Part shown: positions 45,796 to 63,972 of the stretch, in pieces
How the letters are laid out: every line of letters starts with the position of its first letter
Numbering within the stretch: position 1 is the first letter of the stretch
NCBI RefSeq assembly: GCF_003576645.1
Contig: NC_044918.1
Span: forward strand, 32,756,431-32,820,430
Source of the DNA: Ipomoea triloba
Taxonomy: Eukaryota > Streptophyta > Magnoliopsida > Solanales > Convolvulaceae
DNA length: 64,000 nt
Direction: 5' to 3'
Program-made: the position numbers and the translations under genes
The notes under the pieces: model-generated
The model's database searches: none
The model's input: the letters and a program-made list of their open reading frames with translations, nothing else
What the model was told of the DNA's origin: nothing

Positions 45796-46233
45796 AGGAA
45801 AAAAAAAAAAAAACAAACAAACAAAAAGCAACTTTATTTCAAGGCGATTAATTAATTAAATAAACGAAAATATAAATGCAATATAAGTTCTTATTGTTTA
45901 CTTTACTTGGATCAGTTATGACGATGACAACAATATTTTTGAAATCATTATTTTAGAAGTTTCTCCCTACTTTCTGATAGTAGAGATTCATCACGAAAGA
46001 AACATGGGTAGTTATGAGAATATTTGGTGGAAGCATGAGCCACCTTAATTAGCTTGTTGGATTGTTGTGCAGTTAGTTCCCTACGCTACAAGCATAGTTA
46101 ATGTTATCCATCAGTTCCTGGCTGGTATTGGCCATAACTAGCAGAGGGCCCAGTGAACTAACTGTTGGAAAAATAGCACTAAAATGGTATTTTAAGTGGC
46201 CATTTTTGTGGTACAATTAAAAGTGGGGTTCAC

Positions 46234-47978
46234 TGATGTGTAAAGTGGTGTAGTGAATTTGTGGGTTAATTATATCGTTCTCAAGGGATTGGGTTTTATG
46301 GCATGTACTTGTATAGCAATTAAATTTTTAGGCATTAAGATGAATAAATTTAACAAGAATCCAAGCAATCATATATGAGTTGATATGTAACAAGCTATAA
46401 CAGGTTCAAGAATTAAAAGCAATATTACAATTGGTATAAACTCTAATAATTAAAGATAGGACTCGAATTAAGGAGAATTATCTTATAGATGCAATAATAA
46501 CAAGATTAGGGGAAAACAATTAATTTAAGAGTTCAATGAATTGCACAAAAGAATCTTTAATCTAAATTTCATTTTCATGAACTAAAGATAAAGATTAGAA
46601 CAAGGATTTGCTCCACTTCCGTGACATATCAATTCCTAGTTCTTAGAGGACATAAGCAATTTAAAACCACAATGTTCTTTACTTTCGTAAATTAAATTGG
46701 GTGCATACAAAGAGTAGCTTGATTTCAACATATAACTTCCATTATAAAATGAAATCATCCAAAGGCAAGTTAACAAATGTTACATACCATTTACTAACAA
46801 GATTTCAATTAAATCTATGCATACTTCAATAAACTCTTGAATTAAAGCCTTCCCCTTTATGAAATATTCATGAACTTAGCATCAATAAAGATAATCCTAC
46901 CCTAATTCAAGTCCTTAATGCAACTACTCACAATTCATAATGGAATACAACAAACTAACAATATTTAAATTCATAAGCATGGTAAATAAATTGTAAAGAG
47001 ATAAAGGGAACAAGAAAACTTATGGATTGAAGACCAAACTCTTGGAGTTTCCTCCTACACTCTTGCTTGAACAAAAACACAACACTAAAACTAAGCTAGA
47101 ATGAGAGGAGATAGAAGGAATTAGTGAGGAATGGTGTGTTGAAGTTTGAGAGTTACAAGACTTTATATAGGCATCAAAAGGGAGCAAAGATGGACAATTA
47201 CATATGCAATGACCTCACATTCCATCTGAATTTGGAAATGGGGAATTACATATGCCATGACCTCACATATCATAATGAGAAAGAAGATGGAAAATTTCGC
47301 AAGCAATGACATCACTGCACGCAGCTTCATCTTCCGGGCTGTTTTTTCTCCATTTTCTGATCGGAATTATGAATTTTGTATTTCTGGCAAAGTTGTAGCC
47401 CTTGAAGTCTTCTTTCTAACGGTGCAAAGATCACTTAATTTGGATATTCCTACTCTGAGATATGGTCAAAATACCGAACAGTGGACAATTTGTGCGGAAA
47501 TATCAGATTTTAGACACTTGTTCCACTTTTGCTTTGGTTTATCCATATGATCAATCACCATCCAAAATATCACTCTTTGATTCCATTATTGCCTGATCTT
47601 TAATGATGAAAATGGACCAAATCTTCTTTGCTTTTGTCCTCCACTTTAATTCATCATCATCCATCTTCTCATTTTTGTTCTTGTCCCTTGATGATCCTCC
47701 TTGTCTTCATGATTTTCCTGATATCTCCTACTAGCATTTAAACACATTAGGATGGCTTATTAAAGATGAAAATTACAAATTAAACTTAGGATTTCTCTAA
47801 ACCATCCCATTAAATGCAATACGGCCTAATTTTCTTTACTTTATTCCAAATAAGATGATAGTTGCAAACATTAATCAAAGTAAAGAAAATCAAGGCTATA
47901 ATGATCACAATTTATACAATCTAGTGGACAAATAAGCTTAAATATGGGGATTAAATATGATCAAATATGCACTTATCA
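46234..47978 (-). mobile_element. 3' LTR of Athila-like element
   Basis: Plus strand TGATGTGTAAAG ... GCACTTATCA. In element orientation a 25-bp word of the type 'atgtgaggtcat.gcatatgt' occurs twice before a TATA box (reverse of 47163-47172, TATATAAAG). It contains no gene; the ORFs at 47124-47550 are by-products. Confidence 0.9.
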
Positions 47979-47992
47979 ACTCCCCCACACTT
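47979..47992 (-). other. Polypurine tract of Athila-like element
   Basis: On the minus strand AAGTGTGGGGGAGT directly before the LTR start TGATAAGTGC. It is the plus-strand priming site. Confidence 0.85.
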
Positions 47993-48332: not shown

Positions 48333-49409
48333 TTAAAACATTTCATCTTCCCACGGAACACGAGATGAATTGGCAAAGGAAGTAGAGTGAGCAAGATTTA
48401 TCAATTGTTGATATCTTTTCTTTTTAGAAAAAGATTCCCCCAGTGTTTGAGTTTCTAAGCCTAACTCATTGTTGGGGTTTGTCAACATCTGCTCACTTTC
48501 GTGTTCTAGCTCAATCACCTTCTCCCCTTGGTCATAATCTTTCTTAAACTTGCTCAACAGTCGATCCATGTACTGTAATTTCCTATGTGGCCATTGATTG
48601 ATTCCCAACTCGGTGCATATTTTCTTCAGCTTGTCTTTTCCTATGTGTAATTCCCTTACCGCCTGGACAACTGGTAAGTGGAAGAATTTTGAAATCATTT
48701 CAATGCTCCAAGATTTTTCAGAGGTGCTCTTCTTATCCACAATGGTTATGACTGTGTTGGATGCTTCTTCTATAATTTCCTCAGTTGCAACCTCATTGAT
48801 TTCTTTGACTTCTGGTACTTCATCCTTGAAATTCCAGATAGAATCAAATTCTTGGCCAAAGCTGCGAATGTGTTCATCGCTCGAGGATCTTGAAGCTTCA
48901 CCTACTGGAGCCAAAGTGCATTCCTCATACTGATAATCCCAGAGGGAGTTCTCAGTAATGGAATGGTTATACTGGTAAGGAGGAGGAGTATAAATTTCCA
49001 GGTTATCCTCCAACCTTAAGAATTTTTTCTGCGGCCATTCGGAAATCCCTAACTCCCTGCACCTAAGCTTTTTCGAAAATGTCCTTTCCTTCTCGTTTTC
49101 TTTCCTCTGAACGGCTACCTCCCTTGAAGGTTCAATTTCAGCAACAGCCTCAGCTCTAACAGTTGGTTGATTGAGTTCATGAAACTCATTCTCAAAATCA
49201 TAGAGAGGAGGATTGAGTTCATGAAACTCATTCTCAAAATCATAGAGAGGAGTATTGAGTTCATGAAACTCATTCTCAAAATCATAGAGAGGAGTAAGAT
49301 TCATCTCATCCCAAATTGAGGTATCATCAAAATCAGAACAATAAATGAATTGAGAATGAAAAGAGGATGAAACATGATTCGTCATTTGATTAGAAAGATT
49401 AAATAGCAA
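48333..49409 (-). CDS. RWP-RK domain protein carried in the Athila-like element
   Basis: 358 residues on the element's coding strand, between pol and the 3' LTR, where Athila elements have an env-like ORF or nothing. Residues about 228-286 match the RWP-RK DNA-binding domain of plant transcription factors (RKD and NIN-like families): MISKFFHLPVVQAVRELH, then LKKICTELGINQWPHRKL, with the signature at 272-277 reading QWPHRK instead of RWPxRK. A second, partial and more diverged copy lies at 111-137 (LRCRELGISEWPQKKF). The rest is acidic; WDEM and LYDFENEF segments lie N-terminally. A 14-residue block (LYDFENEFHELN) stands three times at about 38-80 through exact 42-bp duplications, probably an assembly fault. 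No intron interrupts it. Reading: a host regulatory gene captured as cDNA. Alternatives: an old element gene of the family, or chance retention of a host fragment. Expression is unknown. Confidence 0.75.
   Translation of the reverse strand: MLFNLSNQMTNHVSSSFHSQFIYCSDFDDTSIWDEMNLTPLYDFENEFHELNTPLYDFENEFHELNPPLYDFENEFHELNQPTVRAEAVAEIEPSREVAVQRKENEKERTFSKKLRCRELGISEWPQKKFLRLEDNLEIYTPPPYQYNHSITENSLWDYQYEECTLAPVGEASRSSSDEHIRSFGQEFDSIWNFKDEVPEVKEINEVATEEIIEEASNTVITIVDKKSTSEKSWSIEMISKFFHLPVVQAVRELHIGKDKLKKICTELGINQWPHRKLQYMDRLLSKFKKDYDQGEKVIELEHESEQMLTNPNNELGLETQTLGESFSKKKRYQQLINLAHSTSFANSSRVPWEDEMF
49165..49292 (-). repeat. 42-bp tandem triplication in RWP-RK ORF
   Basis: Copies begin at 49171, 49213 and 49255 ('ttgagttcatgaaactc'), exact in spacing and nearly exact in sequence. 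Frame is kept because 42 is a multiple of three. Confidence 0.9.
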
Positions 49410-49738
49410 GGAATCACATCAATGAAGAAGAATGAGAAAGTAAGCAGAGGTTGGGGAAAAACAACAAGCTAAGTCAAGAATCCTTATCAGAAGAAAGAAA
49501 AGACAATTTTAAAGGATAAAGAACAGGACATACTAACCTGAGAGCTGAACACCAATCTCGATTTCCGGGGCTTGCTGAGCACTAACGAATGGCTTTTGTA
49601 AAAAGAGCGATAGTACAATGTCGGCCATTATTGAAACTAGGAAAATTAAATCAACAAATTTAAACTCACATCAAATAAAATCTTGGGTTGCCTCCCAAGA
49701 AGCGCTCGTTTAAGGTCATGAGCTCGACCCCTGATTCT
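49410..49738 (-). other. Spacer between pol and third ORF
   Basis: No ORF. 49682-49707 carries the phrase 'ttgggttgcctcccaagaag' that follows pol in many plant Athila-type elements. A polyadenylation or splice function is possible but not shown. Confidence 0.6.
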
Positions 49739-52700
49739 TTATTCATATATGGGCTGGAAGAGGTCCCAAACTGCCCTGGCCTCGTTCTTCTCTGCTTCCT
49801 GCTCCTTGAATGCCTCATTAAACAGTTTCAATCTTTGCCCATTAACCACAAATGTTTTTCCCTCCTTGTTGGAAATTTCAACTGCTCCTGAGGGAAAATG
49901 CTCTTCCACTTGAAATGGTCCTGACCACCTTGATTTTAATTTACCTGGGAACAACTTGAGTCTTGAGTTGTAGAGTAGAACTTGGTCTCCAGGTTCAAAG
50001 TATCTCCTCAAAATCCTTTTATCATGAAAATACTTGGTCCTCTCTTTGTAGATCCTAGTATTCTCATAGGCATCCATCCGAAATTCTTCAAGCTCATTCA
50101 AACACATCAACCTCTTTTCTCTTGCCAAATCCTCATTCAGATTCAATCTTGCCACTGCCCAATATGCCTTGTGTTCATACTCAACCGGCAAATGACATGA
50201 TTTTCCAAAGACGAGTTTGAACGGTGAGACACCAATAGGGGTCTTGTAGGCAGTTCTCAAAGCCCATAGTGCATCATCTAGCTTTAAAGACCAATCTTTT
50301 CTTGTTGGACTCACTACCTTTTCAAGGATTGACTTGATCTCCCTATTTGCCAACTCGACTTGTCCGCAAGTTTGAGAATGGTATGGCGTAGAAAGTCGGT
50401 GATGGATGCCATACTTGAGAAGAATCCTTTCCAAGAGTTTGTTACAAAAATGCTTGCCATTGTTAGTGATGAAAGCTCTTGGCATTCCAAACCTGGAAAA
50501 AATGTTCTTCTTAACAAATTTCAACACTGTCTTTGAATCATTCCTTGGGGTTGCAACAGCTTCTACCCCTTTAGACACATAATCCACAGCTACTAGGATA
50601 TACTCATTCCCAAATGACTTTGGAAATGGACCCATGAAGTCCATTCCCCATACATCAAAGAGTTCCACTTCGAGTATACCTTTCTGAGGCATTTCATGTT
50701 TCCTATTGATAGTGCCAGTCCTTTGACAATTGTTGCACTTGCTCACAAATTCCCTTGCAGTAGCAAACAAGGTAGGCCAAAATAGTCCAGATTGTAGGAC
50801 TTTTAGAGCTGTGCGATCGGCACTCATGTGTCCACCATAAGGAGAGGAATGGCAATGGCTCAAGACACTTATGAATTCCTCTTCTGGTATGCATCTTCTT
50901 ATAATCCCATCTGCACATCTTTTGAACAACAGTGGCTCATCCCAAAAGTAATCTTTCACATCATGCAAAAACCTTTTCCTTTTGTTGAAATTAAAATCCT
51001 TAGGGATGTAGCCACTTACCAGGTAATTCACAATGTCTGCGAACCATGGCACATACCATTTTCCAAATCCAGTCAAGATATACAATGTTTCTCCCTTGAA
51101 GGAATCATCTATGGGCAATTCATCATCCTTTTGGCCTTCAAGTCTGGACAGGTGATCGGCCACAACATTCTCGGATCCTTTCTTGTCTCTAATCTCCAGA
51201 TCAAATTCTTGAAGTAGGAGCACCCATCGGATCAGCCTCGGCTTTGCATCTTTCTTTTGGAATAAATACTTCAAAGCAGCATGGTCGGTGTGAACTATCA
51301 CCTTGCTCCCAAGCAAATAGGACCGAAATTTCTCCATAGCAAACACCACCGCAAGAAGCTCCTTCTCAGTTGTTGCATAGTTGACTTGAGCATCATCAAG
51401 TGTGTGGCTTGCGTAATGGATCACATAGTAGCACCTGTCCTTCTTTTGGCATTGCACCGCCCCAACTGCATAGTCACTCGCATCACACATCAATTCGAAC
51501 GGTAGATTCCAATCAGGAGGTTGAATGATTGGAGCATGACATAGAGCTTCCTTCAATCTGTTAAAAGTAATAAGACAAGATTCATCAAAATTAAACGCCA
51601 CCTCTTTCGCAAGCAAGTGCGTGAGGGGTTTTGCAATTTTAGAGAAATCTTTGATGAATCTTCTGTAAAACCCAGCGTGACCAAGAAAACTCCTTACTCC
51701 TTTTACTGAGCTTGGGGGTGGCAATTTTGAAATGACTTCAATCTTTGCCGGGTCTACTTCAATTCCCCTTGCTATGACTTCAATCTTTGCCGGGTCTACT
51801 TCAATTCCCCTTGCTAAAATTTTGTGGCCAAGAACTATGCCTTCAGTTGCCATAAAATGACATTTTTCCCAATTCAGAACTAAATTGACTTCTTGGCACC
51901 TGCACAGAACTTTATCAAGATTTATCAAACAATCATCAAACGACTTACCATAAACTGAGAAATCGTCCATGAATACTTCCATGATTTCTTCCACCATTTC
52001 AGAAAAGATTGCCATCATGCACCTTTGAAAAGTAGCTGGTGCATTACACAAACCAAATGACATCTTTTTGAAAGCAAAGGTGCCATATTGACATGTGAAT
52101 GTTGTCATTTCTTGATCATCTGGGTGAATAGAAATATGAAAATATCCTGAAAAACCATCTAGAAAACAGAAGTATTCATTTTTGGACATTCTCTCAAGCA
52201 ATTGATCAATAAATGGAAGGGGGTAATGATCTTTCCTAGTAGACTTATTCAATTTTCTGTAATCAATGCACATTCTATGACCAGTAACAAGTCTAGTAGG
52301 AATCAACTCATTATTGTCATTTTCAATGACCGTTATACCGCTCTTTTTCGGAACAACATGTATGGGACTCACCCACTTGCTGTCCGAAATAGGATATATA
52401 ATGTCGGCCTCAAGCAATTTCAAAATTTCCTTCTTAACTACATCCTTCAAATTGGGATTTAATCTCCTAAGGGGTTCGACAGTAGGTTTGGCATTCTCTT
52501 CTAAATAAATTCTATGTATGCAGTACTTAGGATCAATGCCAATTAAATCACCAATAGTATAACCAATTACCCTCCTATGTTTTCTAAGCACATTAAGCAG
52601 CTTATCAATTTCATCACTATGCAAAGAAGAATTAACAATTACAGGATAAGTGGAGTTAGAGCCCAGAAAAACATACCTTAGACTAGGAGGTAAAGGTTTT

Positions 52701-55054
52701 AGTTCTACCTTTGGTGCATGTTCCTCTCTTAGCGGGTCAAGAGCAGCAAAAATTCTTTCTCCAGCCTCACCTTGACCAAAAATCCCTTGCTCGCATGTGT
52801 CCATCTCCTTTTGGGTGCAGATTCCAAATTTCTCAAGAAGTTCTTCAACAATCGAATACTCCTTGTCAATCTTCAAGACTTCACTAGGGTTTACCTCACA
52901 AATTTCCACCATATTGCATTCATCAATGTAAGTTGGTTGGTGTTTGGCCATTTTGAATATATCAAATTCAATCTTGTGATCGGCCACTTCCATAACAAGC
53001 TTCCCCCTTTTTACATCAATGATCGCCCCAGCTGTGGCTAGAAATGGTCTACCAAGGATTATGGGTACCTTGGCATCTTCCTCAATGTCAAGAATCACAA
53101 AATCTCCCGGGATGTAGTATTGATCGATCATTACTGGGATGTCTTCCAATACTCCCACTGGGCGCTTTATTAAGCGATTCGCCATTTGAAGTGTCATGCT
53201 AGTGGGTTTCGGCTCTCNTGAAATGACTTCAATCTTTGCCGGGTCTACTTCAATTCCCCTTGCTAAAATTTTGTGGCCAAGAACTATGCCTTCAGTTGCC
53301 ATAAAATGACATTTTTCCCAATTCAGAACTAAATTGACTTCTTGGCACCTGCACAGAACTTTATCAAGATTTATCAAACAATCATCAAACGACTTACCAT
53401 AAACTGAGAAATCGTCCATGAATACTTCCATGATTTCTTCCACCATTTCAGAAAAGATTGCCATCATGCACCTTTGAAAAGTAGCTGGTGCATTACACAA
53501 ACCAAATGACATCTTTTTGAAAGCAAAGGTGCCATATTGACATGTGAATGTTGTCATTTCTTGATCATCTGGGTGAATAGAAATATGAAAATATCCTGAA
53601 AAACCATCTAGAAAACAGAAGTATTCATTTTTGGACATTCTCTCAAGCAATTGATCAATAAATGGAAGGGGGTAATGATCTTTCCTAGTAGACTTATTCA
53701 ATTTTCTGTAATCAATGCACATTCTATGACCAGTAACAAGTCTAGTAGGAATCAACTCATTATTGTCATTTTCAATGACCGTTATACCGCTCTTTTTCGG
53801 AACAACATGTATGGGACTCACCCACTTGCTGTCCGAAATAGGATATATAATGTCGGCCTCAAGCAATTTCAAAATTTCCTTCTTAACTACATCCTTCAAA
53901 TTGGGATTTAATCTCCTAAGGGGTTCGACAGTAGGTTTGGCATTCTCTTCTAAATAAATTCTATGTATGCAGTACTTAGGATCAATGCCAATTAAATCAC
54001 CAATAGTATAACCAATTACCCTCCTATGTTTTCTAAGCACATTAAGCAGCTTATCAATTTCATCACTATGCAAAGAAGAATTAACAATTACAGGATAAGT
54101 GGAGTTAGAGCCCAGAAAAACATACCTTAGACTAGGAGGTAAAGGTTTTAGTTCTACCTTTGGTGCATGTTCCTCTCTTAGCGGGTCAAGAGCAGCAAAA
54201 ATTCTTTCTCCAGCCTCACCTTGACCAAAAATCCCTTGCTCGCATGTGTCCATCTCCTTTTGGGTGCAGATTCCAAATTTCTCAAGAAGTTCTTCAACAA
54301 TCGAATACTCCTTGTCAATCTTCAAGACTTCACTAGGGTTTACCTCACAAATTTCCACCATATTGCATTCATCAATGTAAGTTGGTTGGTGTTTGGCCAT
54401 TTTGAATATATCAAATTCAATCTTGTGATCGGCCACTTCCATAACAAGCTTCCCCCTTTTTACATCAATGATCGCCCCAGCTGTGGCTAGAAATGGTCTA
54501 CCAAGGATTATGGGTACCTTGGCATCTTCCTCAATGTCAAGAATCACAAAATCTCCCGGGATGTAGTATTGATCGATCATTACTGGGATGTCTTCCAATA
54601 CTCCCACTGGGCGCTTTATTAAGCGATTCGCCATTTGAAGTGTCATGCTAGTGGGTTTCGGCTCTCCAAGGTTGAGCCTCTTGCAAAGAGAGTAAGGCAT
54701 GAGGCTCACACTAGCTCCGAGATCACATAGAGCACGACCCACAACAAATCCTCCAACGATACATGGAATAGCAAAACTTCCAGGATCCTTCAACTTCGGT
54801 GGTAGATTCTTTTGTATTGCAGCGCATGCCAATGCTCCCTCACTAAGATCTATCACTGCACTCTTCTCCAGCTTCTTTTTATTACTCAAAATATCCTTCA
54901 AGAATTTCTTGTATGATGGTATTTGAGTAACAGCATCCACAAAAGGCATAGATATCTCCAACTTGTCAAGCATCATCTTGAATTTGTTATCCCTATCGGT
55001 TTCTTTGGACTTCCACAACCTTTGTGGAAATGGCAATAAGTTGCAAGGAATCAC
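49739..55054 (-). CDS. Athila-like pol: protease, RT, RNase H, integrase
   Basis: One long minus-strand frame, 1771 codons as assembled. Read from 55054: protease with [14 protein letters not shown] (near 54735), RT with [19 protein letters not shown] and the catalytic FMDDFSVYG, RNase H with [11 protein letters not shown] (near 51480) and ADHLSRLEG, the integrase zinc finger ([15 protein letters not shown] ... CNNCQRTG) and the integrase core ([33 protein letters not shown]). The second catalytic position, normally Asp, is Asn (codon at 50462-50464). The protease end and RT appear twice because of the duplication at 51774-54666, so the natural protein is about 480 residues shorter. A further 42-bp duplication repeats [14 protein letters not shown] at 51732-51815. 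No chromodomain follows integrase, as expected for Athila. The frame continues upstream into gag except for a junction stop at 55085-55087. Confidence 0.92.
51774..54666. repeat. Direct duplication flanking the N at 53218 (assembly)
   Basis: 51774-53217 equals 53223-54666 at an offset of 1449. The right copy contains only one of the two 42-bp units that stand at 51732-51815, so the same locus is shown once with and once without that tandem repeat. Confidence 0.9.
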
Positions 55055-55390
55055 CGAATCATCAATTTGCTTGCCCTTGTTCTTTTAAGGAATCACCGAA
55101 TCATCAATTTGCTTGCCCTTGTTCTTTTTACCTTGGCTAGAATCATCAATTTGCTTGCCCTTGTTCTTTTTACCTTGGCTAGGATCCTCCTTTGTCTGCA
55201 CTTGTCCTTCGGGATCTTGGCTAGGATCCTCCTTTGTCTGCACTTGTCCTTCGGGATCTCCTTTTTGTGGTAGAAGTTCTTTTTCTTTCCCTTCATGATC
55301 TCCTTTTTGTGGTAGAAGTTCTTTTTCTTTCCCTTCATTTTCAAGAGTTTGTGGTAGAAGTTCTTTTTCTTTCCCTTCATTTTCAAGAGT
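55045..55390 (-). repeat. Five successive 42-bp tandem duplications at the gag-pol border
   Basis: Steps of exactly 42 bp: 'aaggaatcacc' at 55045/55087, 'aatcatcaatttgc' at 55099/55141, 'aggatcctcc' at 55181/55223, 'atctccttttt' at 55256/55298 and 'gtggtagaag' at 55309/55351. The first of them creates the TAA at 55085-55087 that separates gag from pol. Confidence 0.9.
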
Positions 55391-58300
55391 AATGTTATCG
55401 TCTGGAAAGGGTGGATCAGTCAAAGACTTGCCACTTCTAGTTACAACAGCATTGACTTGATTCCTAGGATTTTCAGTGCTTGCTAGAAGTTTACCATTAA
55501 ATGAAGGTTGGGTAGAAGCTTGGGCACCTCCTCCTTGTTGTTGAGCTCGAAGACCTTCAACTTCGGTTTGCAATTTACTCATTTGTGTCATAATCATGTT
55601 CATGAAGGTTTTCATGTCTGGATCTTGTGAATACCCTTGCTGATTCTGAGCATTTTCTTGGCTCGTACCTTGTCCTTGATTTCCTCTCCATTGCTGGTTG
55701 CCTTGATATCCACCTCTAAAGCCTTGGTTGCCTTGAAAACCAGGAGGTGGATTTCTCCCTTGAAAACCTTGATTGCTCCAAGAAGGATTGACATGATTCC
55801 TCCATTGCGCTTGGCCTTGAGGTCTGTGGTATCCAATCATGTCAACTTGCTCTACTGTTGAATAAGAGTTGTGGCTGCAAGGTTCCAATAGCTGACAATT
55901 TTGAGAAGCATGAGCACCGCCACAAATAGCGCAACTGAGCACCATAGCCATAGTTGAAGATGGTGGTGGACTTGGAGTTGTCGTTTGTACCATCGAGTAG
56001 GCTTGTGGTGTGGGTGGCATCTGGGATGAGGAAATGACTGACTGAGCATTCGCCTTCTTATTCAGCACAATTTCTTTCAACATGTGTTGGATTGAATCCA
56101 GTTGGGCTTGCATGGCAACCTTCTCATCCACTTCAAATATACCTGCTGCTTTCTCTTTCCTTGGTTGCTCGACTCTTTCATTGTACCAATACGCAGTGTT
56201 GGCTGTGATTCTTTCTATCAGCTGCTCTCCATGATCGGGCGTCATATCAGGAAACACTCCCCCCATAGAAGAAGTATCCAACACTGTCTTGTAGTTGTCC
56301 AGCAATCCTTCATAAAAAGATGAAATGAAATCCCAGGAGATAGGAGATTCCTAGGACACTGCCTCCTGAGATCCTTGAACCTCTTCCATGCCTCGTATAG
56401 ATTTTCACTTCCGAATTGCTGGAAATTATGGATTTGCTTCTTCAATTTTGCAGCCTTGGAGGGTGGATAGTATTCTTGCATGAAAGATTTGTACAGCTGG
56501 TCCCATGTGTTGAAATGATTTGGCCCGAAGGAATTGAGCCAACTCAGAGCTTGATCCCTCAACGAAAATGGGAACAATCGCAGCTTGATTGCATCCATAG
56601 ATACCCCATTCATCTTGATAGTTTGGCATATTCTGTCGAAATGGGTGATATGCGCTTTAGGATCTTCCAACTTTGAACCTCCAAATTGATTTGCTTGCAC
56701 CAAGTTGATCATGGAAGTCTTGAGTTCAAAGTTATTGGCCTCGATTCCGGGATAGGCAATGCAATCTTCTTCTTCAAATTGGGGAGCCAGATGAGTAGCC
56801 ATGGGTTGAAAATTTTGTGCTCTTTGGTAGAAGTAGGGTTGGGCTCTTTGAGGGAAATTCTGGTATGGGTCAAACATAGGGTTTGTGAAGAAATTTGGGT
56901 TCAAAAGATGAGGAAAATTTTGCATCCCGGCTCCTTGTAGTTGCGGTGGAAATTGAAAACCTAATCCTCCTCCTAAATAAGGATTTAGATTCGGATTTTC
57001 CATGGAGGTAGAGATTGGTATTCGTACCGGTGCCACTGGATCTTGAGAGGTATTGGGTTGAGCCTCCGTGTGTGCTCCTTGACTCTGGCTTGNATCTCCT
57101 TTTTGTGGTAGAAGTTCTTTTTCTTTCCCTTCATTTTCAAGAGTAATGTTATCGTCTGGAAAGGGTGGATCAGTCAAAGACTTGCCACTTCTAGTTACAA
57201 CAGCATTGACTTGATTCCTAGGATTTTCAGTGCTTGCTAGAAGTTTACCATTAAATGAAGGTTGGGTAGAAGCTTGGGCACCTCCTCCTTGTTGTTGAGC
57301 TCGAAGACCTTCAACTTCGGTTTGCAATTTACTCATTTGTGTCATAATCATGTTCATGAAGGTTTTCATGTCTGGATCTTGTGAATACCCTTGCTGATTC
57401 TGAGCATTTTCTTGGCTCGTACCTTGTCCTTGATTTCCTCTCCATTGCTGGTTGCCTTGATATCCACCTCTAAAGCCTTGGTTGCCTTGAAAACCAGGAG
57501 GTGGATTTCTCCCTTGAAAACCTTGATTGCTCCAAGAAGGATTGACATGATTCCTCCATTGCGCTTGGCCTTGAGGTCTGTGGTATCCAATCATGTCAAC
57601 TTGCTCTACTGTTGAATAAGAGTTGTGGCTGCAAGGTTCCAATAGCTGACAATTTTGAGAAGCATGAGCACCGCCACAAATAGCGCAACTGAGCACCATA
57701 GCCATAGTTGAAGATGGTGGTGGACTTGGAGTTGTCGTTTGTACCATCGAGTAGGCTTGTGGTGTGGGTGGCATCTGGGATGAGGAAATGACTGACTGAG
57801 CATTCGCCTTCTTATTCAGCACAATTTCTTTCAACATGTGTTGGATTGAATCCAGTTGGGCTTGCATGGCAACCTTCTCATCCACTTCAAATATACCTGC
57901 TGCTTTCTCTTTCCTTGGTTGCTCGACTCTTTCATTGTACCAATACGCAGTGTTGGCTGTGATTCTTTCTATCAGCTGCTCTCCATGATCGGGCGTCATA
58001 TCAGGAAACACTCCCCCCATAGAAGAAGTATCCAACACTGTCTTGTAGTTGTCCAGCAATCCTTCATAAAAAGATGAAATGAAATCCCAGGAGATAGGAG
58101 ATTCCTAGGACACTGCCTCCTGAGATCCTTGAACCTCTTCCATGCCTCGTATAGATTTTCACTTCCGAATTGCTGGAAATTATGGATTTGCTTCTTCAAT
58201 TTTGCAGCCTTGGAGGGTGGATAGTATTCTTGCATGAAAGATTTGTACAGCTGGTCCCATGTGTTGAAATGATTTGGCCCGAAGGAATTGAGCCAACTCA

Positions 58301-58846
58301 GAGCTTGATCCCTCAACGAAAATGGGAACAATCGCAGCTTGATTGCATCCATAGATACCCCATTCATCTTGATAGTTTGGCATATTCTGTCGAAATGGGT
58401 GATATGCGCTTTAGGATCTTCCAACTTTGAACCTCCAAATTGATTTGCTTGCACCAAGTTGATCATGGAAGTCTTGAGTTCAAAGTTATTGGCCTCGATT
58501 CCGGGATAGGCAATGCAATCTTCTTCTTCAAATTGGGGAGCCAGATGAGTAGCCATGGGTTGAAAATTTTGTGCTCTTTGGTAGAAGTAGGGTTGGGCTC
58601 TTTGAGGGAAATTCTGGTATGGGTCAAACATAGGGTTTGTGAAGAAATTTGGGTTCAAAAGATGAGGAAAATTTTGCATCCCGGCTCCTTGTAGTTGCGG
58701 TGGAAATTGAAAACCTAATCCTCCTCCTAAATAAGGATTTAGATTCGGATTTTCCATGGAGGTAGAGATTGGTATTCGTACCGGTGCCACTGGATCTTGA
58801 GAGGTATTGGGTTGAGCCTCCGTGTGTGCTCCTTGACTCTGGCTTG
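55340..58846. repeat. Direct duplication flanking the N at 57093 (assembly)
   Basis: 55340-57092 equals 57094-58846 at an offset of 1754. The right copy starts just where a 42-bp tandem duplicate ends in the left copy and has only one unit. Confidence 0.9.
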
Positions 58847-58958
58847 CTCGGGAACTACTTCCTCCGGGAGACATTTGGCCTGGGTTGCTAGATTCACCGG
58901 TGTCCATGTTTATCTCCACTGGTTCAAACTCTTTCAACTGATTGGATGAACCTTTCTT

Positions 58959-59125
58959 CAACTTCCTTAACTCTCTAGAGAGTTCTTGGTTTAAAGGACT
59001 CAACTTCCTTAACTCTCTAGAGAGTTCTTGGTTTAAAGGACAAAGGTTTTGACCACCTTGTGATCTAGTTTGCATAAATCGACAAAGGTTTTGACCACCT
59101 TGTGATCTAGTTTGCATAAATCGAA
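58959..59125 (-). repeat. Two 42-bp tandem duplications at gag start
   Basis: 'caacttccttaactctctag' at 58959 and 59001, and 'caaaggttttgaccacc' at 59041 and 59083, both with an exact step of 42. They double RFMQTRSQGGQNLC and PLNQELSRELRK in the protein without a frame change. Confidence 0.9.
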
Positions 59126-59255
59126 AGGTATCCAAATTTAAACAAACTTAAGAAAACACTTAAACAATAAAAACAAAACTTGATCTCCTTCAAAATTCAT
59201 TAATTTTAATGCTAAGATTAGATAATTAATCATACAATACAACCAGATATGCCAA

Positions 59256-59273
59256 TCCCCGGCAACGGCGCCA
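59256..59273 (-). other. Primer-binding site, tRNA-Asp type
   Basis: Plus strand TCCCCGGCAACGGCGCCA equals the 3' end of plant tRNA-Asp; the element's minus-strand RNA would therefore pair with it for 18 bases. It lies 6 bp inside the 5' LTR border, as usual for Athila. Confidence 0.92.
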
Positions 59274-59279
59274 AAAAGT

Positions 59280-61024
59280 TGATGTGTAAAGTGGTGTAGT
59301 GAATTCTTGGGTTAATTATATCGTTCTCAAGGGATTGGGTTTTATGGCATGTACTTGTATATCAATTAAATTCTTAGGCATTAAGATGAATAAATTTAAC
59401 AAGAATCCAAGCAATCATATATGAGTTGATATGTAACAAGCTATAACAGGTTCAAGAATTAAAAGCAATATTACAATTGGTATAAACTCTGATAATTAAA
59501 GATAGGACTTGAATTAAGGAGAATTATCTTATAGATGCAATAATAACAAGATTAGGGGAAAACAAGTAATTTAAGAGTTCAATGAATTGCACAAAAGAAT
59601 CTTTAATCTAAATTTCATTTTCATGAACTAAAGATAAAGATTAGAACAAGGATTTGCTCCACTTCCGTGACATATCAATTCCTAGTTCTTAGAGGACATA
59701 AGCAATTTAAAACCACAATGTTCTTTACTTTCATAAATTAAATTGGGTGCATACAAAGAGTAGCTTGATTTCAACATATAACTTCCATTATAAAATGAAA
59801 TCATCCAAAGGCAAGTTAACAAATGTTACGTACCATTTACTAACAAGATTTCAATTAAATCTATGCATACTTCAATAAACTCTTGAATTAAAGCCTTCCC
59901 CTTTATGAAATATTCATGAACTTAGCATCAATAAAGATAATCCTACCCTAATTCAAGTCCTTAATGCAACTACTCACAATTCATAATGGAATACAACAAA
60001 CTAACAATATTTAAATTCATAAGCATGGTAAATAAATTGTAAAGAGATAAAGGGAACAAGAAAACTTATGGATTGAAGACCAAACTCTTGGAGTTTCCTC
60101 CTACACTCTTGCTTGAACAAAAACACAACACTAAAACTAAGCTAGAATGAGAGGAGATAGAAGGAATTGGTGAGGAATGGTGTGTTGAAGTTTGAGAGTT
60201 ACAAGGCTTTATATAGGCATCAAAAGGGAGCAAAGATGGACAATTACATATGCAATAACCTCACATTCCATCTGAATTTGGAAATGGGGAATTACATATG
60301 CCATGACCTCACATATCATAATGAGAAAGAAGATGGAAAATTTCGCAAGCAATGACATCACTGCACGCAGCTTCATCTTCCGGGCTGTTTTTTCTCCATT
60401 TTATGTTCGGAATTATGAGTTTTTTATTTCTGGTAAAGTTGTAGCCCTTGCAGTCTTCTTTCTAACGGTGCAAAGATCACTTAATTTGGATATTCCTATT
60501 CTGAGATATGGTCAAAATACCGAACAATGGACAATTTGTGCGGAAATATCATATTTTAGACACTTGTTCCACTTTTGCTTTGGTTTATCCATATGATCAA
60601 TCACCATCCAAAATATCACTCTTTGATTCCATTATTGCCTGATCTTTAATGATGAAAATGGACCAAATCTTCTTTGCTTTTGTCCTCCACTTTAATTCAT
60701 CATCATCCATCTTCTCACTTTTGTTCTTGTCCCTTGATGATCCTCCTTGTCTTCATGATTTCCCTGATATCTCCTACTAGCAATTAAACACATTTGGATG
60801 GCTTATTAAAGATGAAAATTACAAATTAAACTTAGGATTTCTCTAAACCATCCCATTAAATGCAATACGGCCTAATTTTCTTTACTTTATTCCAAATAAG
60901 ATGATAGTTGCAAACATTAATCAAAGTAAAGAAAATCAAGGCTATAATGATCACAATTTATACAATCTAGTGGACAAATAAGCTTAAATATGGGGATTAA
61001 ATATGATCAAATATGCACTTATCA
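59280..61024 (-). mobile_element. 5' LTR of Athila-like element
   Basis: Same ends and same length as 46234-47978. A TATA box in element orientation lies opposite 60216-60226 ('ctttatatagg'). Its outer half is repeated at 62038-62960 by the assembly. Confidence 0.9.
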
Positions 61025-63972
61025 TTCACATCTAATTTGGGTCGGGTCAATGTGGATTCTGGTGTTAGGAACATAATGTAATAGGTTTTGATGATACCAA
61101 AATGTTTTTTTAGAATCCCCTAAGTCTCGAAAGATAGGAATCAATGTAAGTTCGACAAGTAAACTAAGAGCGAAAATACAGCCGGGTAACTTGAGCTCAA
61201 CTCGGAAAATATTTAAGCTTAAGGTAAACTTGTGTGAACATCTTAGAAAGTCTCGTGTTGTAATCTTATAGATACATCAGAAGAAGGCACGGGACAACAC
61301 TGGAGGAATAAGGGTCTGCGAGACATCAACTAAGTCTCGAGACATAAGCATAGTTCGAGAGGTAGGACCTCTCGATACAACAACCCAGTTCGAGACATAA
61401 GCAGAGTTCGAGAGATAGATCTCTCGATACATGGGATTCAAGACATCAAACGAACGGGACATCAATCCTGGTCTCGATAAACTGACATTTCTCCAAAATG
61501 CTGAATGACGATCAGGAAGCATGAATAAAGTTTGGAGAAGAAGAATATCATGGAGATAAAATATTAAGGAGGTGCCAGAAGTGGATGCCACATCAGAATT
61601 CCACAACAAACGGATAGAAGGTGCACTAATCCAAAGTCAGTCTTATTCCCTAAAACGAGGATCAATGGGAATTTAAAAAGAGTAACTTTTACCAAAAGTA
61701 GCAAGTGGAGCATGGACTCAAGAAAGTGGATTATGGAATATCCACTACCAAACAAAAGATTCAAGTTACAAGACCACCACTCCATGAAAAATGCTGAAAA
61801 GATGCAAGTCCCATACATAGCATGGGAGACAGATTTCAAACGGAATAATTTTCCCTCCAACGGAATTATTCCTCAACTCTCATATAAAAAGGACGTGAAG
61901 ACACAAGAAAAAGGGGGGAAGTTTTGTAAGAGGCTGGTCATTCGAAAATCTTAAAAAGTGTCTGATTAAAACGTTCAAAAGTGCAAGTCCTCAACTTGGA
62001 ATATCATCCTGATATTCAAAACAGCGAGAAAAACACNTACACTCTTGCTTGAACAAAAACACAACACTAAAACTAAGCTAGAATGAGAGGAGATAGAAGG
62101 AATTGGTGAGGAATGGTGTGTTGAAGTTTGAGAGTTACAAGGCTTTATATAGGCATCAAAAGGGAGCAAAGATGGACAATTACATATGCAATAACCTCAC
62201 ATTCCATCTGAATTTGGAAATGGGGAATTACATATGCCATGACCTCACATATCATAATGAGAAAGAAGATGGAAAATTTCGCAAGCAATGACATCACTGC
62301 ACGCAGCTTCATCTTCCGGGCTGTTTTTTCTCCATTTTATGTTCGGAATTATGAGTTTTTTATTTCTGGTAAAGTTGTAGCCCTTGCAGTCTTCTTTCTA
62401 ACGGTGCAAAGATCACTTAATTTGGATATTCCTATTCTGAGATATGGTCAAAATACCGAACAATGGACAATTTGTGCGGAAATATCATATTTTAGACACT
62501 TGTTCCACTTTTGCTTTGGTTTATCCATATGATCAATCACCATCCAAAATATCACTCTTTGATTCCATTATTGCCTGATCTTTAATGATGAAAATGGACC
62601 AAATCTTCTTTGCTTTTGTCCTCCACTTTAATTCATCATCATCCATCTTCTCACTTTTGTTCTTGTCCCTTGATGATCCTCCTTGTCTTCATGATTTCCC
62701 TGATATCTCCTACTAGCAATTAAACACATTTGGATGGCTTATTAAAGATGAAAATTACAAATTAAACTTAGGATTTCTCTAAACCATCCCATTAAATGCA
62801 ATACGGCCTAATTTTCTTTACTTTATTCCAAATAAGATGATAGTTGCAAACATTAATCAAAGTAAAGAAAATCAAGGCTATAATGATCACAATTTATACA
62901 ATCTAGTGGACAAATAAGCTTAAATATGGGGATTAAATATGATCAAATATGCACTTATCATTCACATCTAATTTGGGTCGGGTCAATGTGGATTCTGGTG
63001 TTAGGAACATAATGTAATAGGTTTTGATGATACCAAAATGTTTTTTTAGAATCCCCTAAGTCTCGAAAGATAGGAATCAATGTAAGTTCGACAAGTAAAC
63101 TAAGAGCGAAAATACAGCCGGGTAACTTGAGCTCAACTCGGAAAATATTTAAGCTTAAGGTAAACTTGTGTGAACATCTTAGAAAGTCTCGTGTTGTAAT
63201 CTTATAGATACATCAGAAGAAGGCACGGGACAACACTGGAGGAATAAGGGTCTGCGAGACATCAACTAAGTCTCGAGACATAAGCATAGTTCGAGAGGTA
63301 GGACCTCTCGATACAACAACCCAGTTCGAGACATAAGCAGAGTTCGAGAGATAGATCTCTCGATACATGGGATTCAAGACATCAAACGAACGGGACATCA
63401 ATCCTGGTCTCGATAAACTGACATTTCTCCAAAATGCTGAATGACGATCAGGAAGCATGAATAAAGTTTGGAGAAGAAGAATATCATGGAGATAAAATAT
63501 TAAGGAGGTGCCAGAAGTGGATGCCACATCAGAATTCCACAACAAACGGATAGAAGGTGCACTAATCCAAAGTCAGTCTTATTCCCTAAAACGAGGATCA
63601 ATGGGAATTTAAAAAGAGTAACTTTTACCAAAAGTAGCAAGTGGAGCATGGACTCAAGAAAGTGGATTATGGAATATCCACTACCAAACAAAAGATTCAA
63701 GTTACAAGACCACCACTCCATGAAAAATGCTGAAAAGATGCAAGTCCCATACATAGCATGGGAGACAGATTTCAAACGGAATAATTTTCCCTCCAACGGA
63801 ATTATTCCTCAACTCTCATATAAAAAGGACGTGAAGACACAAGAAAAAGGGGGAAGGTTGGTCATTCGAAAATCTTAAGAGGTGTCTGATTAAAACGTTC
63901 AAAAGTGCAAGTCAACTTGGAATATCATCCTGATATTCAAAACAGCGAGAAAAACACATCTTAGTGTTTGAG
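60102..63972. repeat. Direct duplication flanking the N at 62037 (assembly)
   Basis: 60102-62036 and 62038-63972 correspond at an offset of about 1936; they differ by small indels only in the last 130 bp before the N (for instance near 61915 and 61990). The second Athila LTR end at 62038-62960 is thus not a third LTR. Confidence 0.88.

What the first reader, a model, noticed from the sequence alone, without database searches (positions are those of the whole stretch)
48333..49409. Athila-like retrotransposon carrying an RWP-RK transcription-factor ORF
Seen: a 358-residue open frame on the element's coding strand between pol and the polypurine tract, inside LTRs with a perfect 5-bp target duplication. 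It has a nearly full RWP-RK domain (LKKICTELGINQWPHRKL) and a second partial one (LRCRELGISEWPQKKF). Known: RWP-RK proteins (RKD, NLP) are plant regulators of gametes/embryos and nitrogen response; retrotransposons sometimes capture host cDNA. Inference: a mobile, intronless, possibly DNA-binding RKD-like protein occupies the env position. If it is conserved across copies, the element may use it to be expressed in gametes or to regulate its own LTR.
Basis: partly seen in the sequence, partly recalled or inferred. Interest (0 to 1): 0.88.

Follow-up and report, generated by a model that had tools for sequence, protein, structure and literature searches.

The report
Retrotransposon carrying a DNA-binding regulator gene
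In a morning-glory genome, a family of virus-like jumping genes carries a plant regulator-type gene where an envelope-like gene often sits, and close relatives of that gene also ride on an unrelated class of jumping DNA called Helitrons; why they carry it is not yet tested.

Summary
The ORF (48333-49418, minus strand) is RWP-RK by Pfam (1.3e-20) and lies between pol and the 3' LTR of a Ty3/gypsy, Athila-like element with a perfect 5-bp target duplication. Variants shared between copies look constrained (7 nonsynonymous, 6 synonymous; ratio 0.29, p=0.028); private ones look near-neutral (0.82).

An ordinary host RKD gene is probably not the immediate source. The closest relatives found are two-domain RWP-RK genes on Helitrons of the same genome. 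Intron-containing relatives lie on a second Helitron family. The Athila ORF lacks both introns compared and has lost half of its first domain, so it looks like processed RNA. I infer that a regulator gene moved between transposon classes. A self-activating or anti-silencing role is my preferred function, but is untested; target-motif scans were negative. The ORF's 42-bp triplication is probably an assembly artefact.

The parts
46229..46233 (.). Target-site duplication TTCAC, left
46234..47978 (-). 3' LTR
   Evidence: 98.57% identical to 59280-61024
47979..47992 (-). Polypurine tract AAGTGTGGGGGAGT next to the 3' LTR
   Evidence: read from the sequence; name by position
48333..49418 (-). RWP-RK ORF, stop to stop, ATG at 49385
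48573..48707 (-). Full RWP-RK domain (residues 238-282), motif QWPHRK
   Evidence: Pfam PF02042; predicted helices, pLDDT 91-93 per ten-residue block over residues 241-280
49008..49070 (-). C-terminal part of a first RWP-RK domain (residues 117-137), relic of a two-domain architecture
49170..49296 (-). Three 42-bp units inside the ORF, probably an assembly artefact
   Evidence: one unit in the 13 near-full-length sisters
49419..49738 (-). Spacer between pol and the ORF, with a pyrimidine-rich stretch and a possible splice acceptor CTTAG|CTTGTTG
   Evidence: sequence read; acceptor implied by sweetpotato model P0002
49739..55084 (-). pol: RT, RNase H, integrase (weak aspartic protease match below cut-off); contains an artefact-like duplication 51774-54666 around the N at 53218
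57996..59147 (-). gag (Retrotrans_gag); the downstream frame is offset, and the stretch is duplicated around the N at 57093
59256..59273 (-). Primer-binding site TGGCGCCGTTGCCGGGGA, six bases inside the 5' LTR boundary
   Evidence: read from the sequence; the tRNA-Asp assignment is recalled
59280..61024 (-). 5' LTR
61025..61029 (.). Target-site duplication TTCAC, right

Best explanation
A multi-copy Ty3/gypsy (Athila-like) retrotransposon family in Ipomoea carries, as a standard accessory gene between pol and the 3' LTR, a processed RWP-RK gene of a lineage that also rides on Helitrons. Shown: the ORF is in many copies at the same place in the element; its closest relatives found are Helitron-borne; it lacks two introns that a Helitron-borne relative has. 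Inferred: RNA of a Helitron-borne two-domain gene, or of a common intronless ancestor, was reverse-transcribed into an Athila ancestor, after which half of the first domain was lost. Inferred: the protein is a nuclear DNA-binding protein (RWP-RK helix block plus an acidic N-terminal arm) that raises transcription, or lifts silencing, of its own element family in trans. My odds: conserved accessory gene 0.9; kinship with Helitron genes 0.9; direction Helitron to Athila 0.5; trans-activating or anti-silencing role 0.45.
For: Copies: 13 sisters with 333-codon frames at 95-96% identity and 4 broken ones; of 17 fetched, 16 have pol pieces on the upstream side, 15 the PPT-side stretch, 13 an LTR hit downstream. 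Second species: four I. batatas clusters with 15 member sequences; P0002 and P0008 begin with a piece of this element's pol. Selection: shared variants 7 nonsynonymous and 6 synonymous, ratio 0.29, p=0.028; private 37 and 11, 0.82. Helitron kinship: group-B genes beside a RepHel frame (Helitron_like_N 1.7e-56, PIF1 1.4e-66) and a hairpin-CTAG|T end; 18 of the 42 best RepHel hits lie within 25 kb of an RWP-RK hit. Trees: Athila groups with B genes. Introns absent. Acidic N-terminal 100 residues, 22 acidic and 2 basic, 8 of the acidic ones in the two extra 42-bp units.
Against: No expression, binding or localisation data. No target motif found in the LTR or the Helitron gene spacer. The ORF is less constrained than integrase (shared 0.29 against 0.12), counts are small and several regions were tested without correction. 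Two of the 13 sisters have a stop. The first R of RWP-RK is Q. The RKD-type C-terminus is only weakly recognisable (44 of 2000 shuffles score as high). The grouping with the 419-aa gene has 84/85 support and the program warns of long branches.
Confidence: 0.55

Rival explanations
1. A host gene of an unusual two-domain RWP-RK lineage was captured separately by Helitrons and by the Athila ancestor; no gene passed from one transposon to the other.
For: Helitrons and LTR elements both capture host genes (PMC7264820). Group-C relatives have introns, as host genes do. Not all RWP-RK loci in the genome were read (one search scored 150 of 380 candidates).
Against: The relatives read as full genes (groups B and C) sit on Helitrons. 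The Athila and B genes share a fused two-domain, intronless form.
Confidence: 0.3
2. The flow went the other way: an ancestral Athila element, with both domains whole, made the intronless gene by reverse transcription, and a Helitron then picked it up.
For: The intronless state of the Helitron-B genes calls for an RNA step, which a retroelement supplies.
Against: The Athila copies seen have only a relic of domain 1, and in the trees the Athila gene branches beside the 419-aa B gene with the 394-aa B gene outside (97/86 and 96/85; 84/85).
Confidence: 0.15
3. A passenger: the ORF is captured sequence that hitch-hikes without a function for the element.
For: Selection evidence is modest; all variants together give 0.63, p=0.078. 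The relic first domain drifts (ratio about 1.2). No target motif found.
Against: Shared variants outside the relic are constrained (1 nonsynonymous, 4 synonymous, p=0.007); the frame is open in 11 of 13 near-full-length sisters and the window copy; the gene is present in two species.
Confidence: 0.25
4. An envelope-like protein, as proposed for other Athila elements, whose RWP-RK likeness is incidental.
For: It lies in the position of Athila env-like ORFs (PMC7264820).
Against: No hydrophobic segment (highest 19-residue mean 0.83); RWP-RK score far above the cut-off.
Confidence: 0.02

Closest known systems
Athila-type Ty3/gypsy retrotransposons with a sense ORF between pol and the 3' LTR (PMC7264820, first of three parts read)
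   Same: Position and strand of the extra ORF; gag-pol with RT, RNase H, integrase order; PBS and PPT words recalled as Athila-like
   Different: The ORF is RWP-RK, with no transmembrane-like segment
Plant Gypsy elements with extra host-type domains, such as the 2-ODD (m6A demethylase-like) ORF of Phalaenopsis and the B3 domain in Aegilops tauschii (PMC9289625, section 12 read)
   Same: A conserved host-type domain fixed in a Gypsy lineage; B3 is also a DNA-binding domain
   Different: RWP-RK does not occur in that paper's main text (its supplementary chart was not seen); here sister genes sit on Helitrons
Helitrons with accessory genes
   Same: RepHel, RPA-type gene and hairpin-CTAG|T end on the elements that carry the sister genes
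   Different: The sister genes are whole RWP-RK genes in pairs or sets, in many copies, rather than gene fragments
VANC anti-silencing proteins of Arabidopsis VANDAL elements (PMC5735166, abstract only)
   Same: A transposon-encoded, sequence-specific regulator is the proposed way of working
   Different: Different protein family and transposon class; no target repeats were found here
Plant RKD transcription factors
   Same: RWP-RK domain; weak trace of an RKD-type C-terminus
   Different: 27-38% identity over part of the protein for the 8 best non-Ipomoea hits, separate in the tree 100/100, fused relic first domain, QWPHRK

Membership tests
RWP-RK domain proteins (PF02042) | Profile score above the curated cut-off | tested here: met
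   73.4 bits against 29.3
RWP-RK domain proteins (PF02042) | Eponymous motif RWPxRK | tested here: not met
   QWPHRK in the window and in the Athila-type proteins whose full domain was aligned; the other letters are kept
RKD subfamily | Groups with RKDs in a tree | tested here: not met
   Athila, B and C genes separate from 10 RKDs, 100/100; no full-length Ipomoea RKD in the tree
RKD subfamily | Conserved C-terminal region | tested here: inconclusive
   4.6 bits; 44 of 2000 shuffles score as high
Ty3/gypsy LTR retrotransposon | LTRs, 5-bp duplication, gag, then RT, RNase H, integrase in that order | tested here: met
Athila lineage | RT phylogeny | not tested
   No RT tree was made; PBS and PPT likeness is recalled; no ATHILA-named Pfam family reached E 0.1 in gag
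Env-like protein | Transmembrane segment | tested here: not met
   Highest 19-residue hydropathy mean 0.83
Helitron (carrier of the group-B sister genes) | Rep and helicase domains | tested here: met
   Helitron_like_N 1.7e-56 and PIF1 1.4e-66 in L038, which adjoins L027
Helitron (carriers of the group-B and group-C sister genes) | 3' end with hairpin and CTRR, followed by T | tested here: met
   CTAG then T in 2 of 2 insertions of each group
Helitron (carriers of the group-B and group-C sister genes) | 5' TC end | not tested
   The 5' ends were not fetched
TE-encoded trans-activator or anti-silencing protein | Binds its own element and raises its expression | not testable with these tools
   Only sequence proxies; motif and repeat scans negative
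Processed (RNA-derived) gene | Introns of the relative are absent | tested here: met
   Two introns of group-C gene 2, seen in 2 of 2 copies, absent from the Athila ORF

The most novel reading that the evidence does not exclude
Ipomoea transposons of two unrelated classes share a self-propagating family of RWP-RK regulators: Helitrons keep the genes as regular cargo, a retrotransposon lineage took one through RNA into its env slot, and the proteins switch their carriers on in reproductive or dedifferentiating cells, so that RKD-like regulation has itself become a trait of mobile parasites.
Probability: 0.25. Interest if true: 0.92.

Novelty: new variant of a known kind. Interest (0 to 1): 0.78.

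Why it matters
The review read in part here says that the origin of most antisense accessory ORFs of plant LTR retrotransposons is unknown and that an envelope-like function of the sense ones remains controversial (PMC7264820). This one has a recognisable DNA-binding domain, a plausible source and sister genes on a second transposon class, so both the origin of such ORFs and the idea that transposons carry their own regulators become directly testable. It also warns annotators: of the 8 close Ipomoea clusters, 4 are named RKD2-like and 1 RKD5-like in the databases, although they match this retrotransposon ORF. A root transcriptome study reported RKD transcripts in sweetpotato and not in I. trifida and proposed a role in storage roots (PMC5234144, passages read); whether those transcripts come from such elements is open and simple to check.

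Tried and rejected
No relative of the ORF in IMG/VR viral contigs (273 pattern matches, none confirmed). No solved structure by sequence or convincingly by fold (best E 1.2). Repeated k-mers in the LTR, the 3' stretch and the Helitron gene spacer: A-rich words; in the 3' stretch also the polypurine word three times (shuffle maximum 4); in the LTR one 10-mer three times, equal to the highest of 100 shuffles. Tandem-repeat scans of the ORF-to-LTR stretch of L009 and of L027 gave no target-like array. RKD-type C-terminus only weak. A protein search limited to the domain and C-terminus found only the same 8 Ipomoea clusters. The search for elements of this family without the ORF (pol-end probe) did not complete, so whether ORF-less relatives exist is unknown. 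A chance ORF and an env protein were considered and rejected. Groups D, E and F of RWP-RK exons (L030-L035) were seen but their carriers were not worked out; L037 gave no RWP-RK frame in my reading.

Papers: PMC7264820, first of three parts of the text; PMC9289625, section 12 and passages; passages found by term of PMC11963269, PMC5234144, PMC12428392, PMC12595863 and PMC11197308; the abstract of PMC5735166; everything else as search listings only. That I found no paper on RWP-RK genes carried by Athila elements or Helitrons rests on searches in one open-access library; supplements were not searched.

Full report
Observation. The minus-strand frame 48333-49418 is open for 361 codons, against a longest open run of 152 in 300 shuffles of the surrounding 1,760 bp. 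Pfam gives RWP-RK at 1.3e-20, 73.4 bits against a cut-off of 29.3. The element around it has LTRs of 1,745 bp with 25 differences (15 transitions, 10 transversions), 5-bp duplications TTCAC, a primer-binding site just inside the 5' LTR and a polypurine tract next to the 3' LTR, gag and pol with RT, RNase H and integrase in Ty3/gypsy order (the aspartic protease match was below its cut-off). At substitution rates recalled from the literature (7e-9 to 1.3e-8 per site and year) the LTR divergence means roughly half to one million years. The Athila label rests on layout, PBS and PPT by recall; no RT tree was made.

Reliability of the stretch. The window contains five duplications of 1.4-1.9 kb, each around a single N (20240, 37268, 53218, 57093, 62037), and many tandem repeats of period 42 with unrelated units. 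Both look like assembly artefacts. The ORF has three such units; the 13 near-full-length sisters have one, as has the database protein P0001. The gag and pol frames of this copy should not be read at face value: the gag frame is offset near 58.0-58.1 kb and a stop at 55085-55087 lies inside a period-42 repeat.

Copies. The protein database gave 8 close clusters, all Ipomoea: four from I. triloba, whose contig lengths equal contigs of the genome that holds the window, so they are not independent of it, and four from I. batatas with 15 member sequences. Two sweetpotato gene models, P0002 and P0008, begin with a piece of this element's pol and continue into the ORF. The next 8 hits, from other plants, have 27-38% identity over 21-55% of the query. 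The whole-genome search (113 of 339 candidates scored, 181 matches, so a lower bound) lists the window copy and 13 others with 333-codon frames at 95-96% identity, 2 of them with an internal stop, plus four broken or rearranged copies. Of these 17 sister loci, 16 have pol pieces on the upstream side, 15 the PPT-side stretch and 13 an LTR hit downstream; L015 and L018, which lack the last two, contain over 3 kb of N; L017 and L023 gave no LTR hit of 150 bp; L025 has LTR sequence where pol is expected. Several sisters have about 1.3 kb more than the window copy between two polypurine-like words; in L009 it holds no ORF over 81 codons.

Selection. Fourteen copies: 44 nonsynonymous and 17 synonymous distinct variants and 2 stops over 805 and 197 sites; pooled pairwise ratio 0.50. 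After dropping L017, a tandem near-duplicate of L016, variants shared by at least two of 13 copies are 7 nonsynonymous and 6 synonymous (ratio 0.29, binomial p=0.028); private ones are 37 and 11 (0.82); all together 0.63, p=0.078. The relic domain is at about 1.2, the full domain at 0.23 on only 4 variants, the rest at 0.06 among shared variants (1 and 4, p=0.007). Integrase in 7 copies (those with a full-length hit, L017 left out) gives 0.12 shared and 0.44 private. Over the deep split, omega is 0.33 between the Athila and the 394-aa Helitron gene and 0.52 with the 419-aa gene. So the ORF looks constrained while the family replicates, less than integrase, and drifts after insertion. Numbers are small and several regions were tested without correction.

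The Helitron link. The PF02042 search of the genome scored 150 of 380 candidates; the 150 listed are over the cut-off. Besides Athila copies these include repeated classes, of which I read two in part. Group B (L026, L027): two divergent intronless ORFs of 419 and 394 codons, each with two RWP-RK domains; the main search lists 14 places with the 419-type match at 42-45% identity. Directly upstream of L027 lies L038 with a 1,288-codon RepHel frame. The two insertions share their sequence up to ...ACGCG(C/A)AACGCGCGTATCTTGGCTAG, followed by T. This 3' end occurs at 17 places of 93% identity or more among 48 matches. Group C (L028 with L040, L029 with L039): intron-containing RWP-RK genes, an RPA-type gene (Rep_fac-A_C 1.3e-12) and the end ...ACGCGCATCGCGCGTGCCACCGCTAG, followed by T in both insertions; a RepHel hit on the right strand lies upstream at C9:2815331, with about 7 kb between it and L029 not read. 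Genome-wide, of the 42 best RepHel hits (of 154 scored matches) 18 lie within 25 kb of an RWP-RK hit (17 of the best 24); 39 of 150 RWP-RK hits are that near, against 0.68 expected, and 0 of 17 Athila-type hits. In 1,000 random placements, with partly approximate contig lengths, at most 4 of 102 RWP-RK clusters were near, against 17 observed. The other 85 clusters include the Athila copies, host genes and classes that I did not work out.

Relationship. In a tree of domain 2 plus C-terminus, Athila, B and C genes are separated from 10 plant RKDs with 100/100; Athila groups with the 419-aa B gene (84/85); the program warns that the C and RKD branches are long. With domains alone, Athila plus B419 domain 2 has 97/86 and with B394 domain 2 96/85; with 52 columns many other forks are unresolved. 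The relic first domain of Athila (KLRCRELGISEWPQKKFLRLEDN) resembles domain 1 of the 394-aa gene (LKVRCRELGISKWPQKKLLRLDDD). In the group-C locus read in full, two neighbouring same-strand genes hold a first-type and a second-type domain; gene 2 has introns before EFDGLWDFK and after FNLIA, in both copies, where Athila reads FGQEFDSIWNFKDEVPEVKEINEVATEE without a break. Athila and B genes therefore look like the spliced product of a read-through RNA over two such genes; that step is inference.

Mechanism. Shown: a DNA-binding-type domain, predicted with pLDDT 91-93 over residues 241-280 while most of the rest is below 50; constraint on shared variants; an acidic N-terminal 100 residues, 22 acidic and 2 basic, 8 of the acidic ones in the two extra 42-bp units. 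Inferred: a nuclear protein that binds and activates, or unsilences, its own family, comparable in working, not in descent, to VANC (PMC5735166, abstract). No target motif was found. A pyrimidine-rich stretch with CTTAG|CTTGTTG lies upstream of the ATG; it fits the junction implied by sweetpotato model P0002, so a spliced subgenomic RNA is possible, but that model is a prediction.

Novelty. A screen of 121 angiosperm genomes reported 15 extra domains in Gypsy elements, among them B3 and a 2-ODD (PMC9289625, section 12); RWP-RK is not in its main text and its supplements were not seen. A conserved RWP-RK gene in an LTR element, with sister genes on Helitrons, was not found in print by the searches named under Tried and rejected. 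I rate it a new variant of a known kind.

Noticed in passing
window 20240, 37268, 53218, 57093, 62037: Five near-identical 1.4-1.9 kb duplications, each around a single N: probably contig joins with unmerged overlaps.
   Followed up: partly
window 11586, 11655, 49170, 51732, 55056, 55174, 55248, 58958, 59039; also L027 685 and 783: Tandem repeats of period exactly 42 with unrelated units, often 100% identical, many inside coding sequence: probably an assembly-wide artefact.
   Followed up: partly
L026, L027 with L038: Helitron with RepHel and two divergent intronless genes, each with two RWP-RK domains; 17 places share its 3' end at 93% identity or more.
   Followed up: yes
L028, L029, L039, L040: Second Helitron family with an RPA-type gene and several intron-containing RWP-RK genes.
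   Followed up: partly
L030-L035: Further repeated RWP-RK exons (106-, 122- and 215-codon frames) whose carriers are unknown; they may be host genes or other mobile DNA.
   Followed up: no
L009 6573-7903: Two polypurine-like words about 1.3 kb apart before the 3' LTR in several sister copies; the window copy has only one, as if the stretch between them had been lost.
   Followed up: partly
I. batatas root transcriptome paper PMC5234144: RKD transcripts reported in sweetpotato roots only; they might come from such elements.
   Followed up: no
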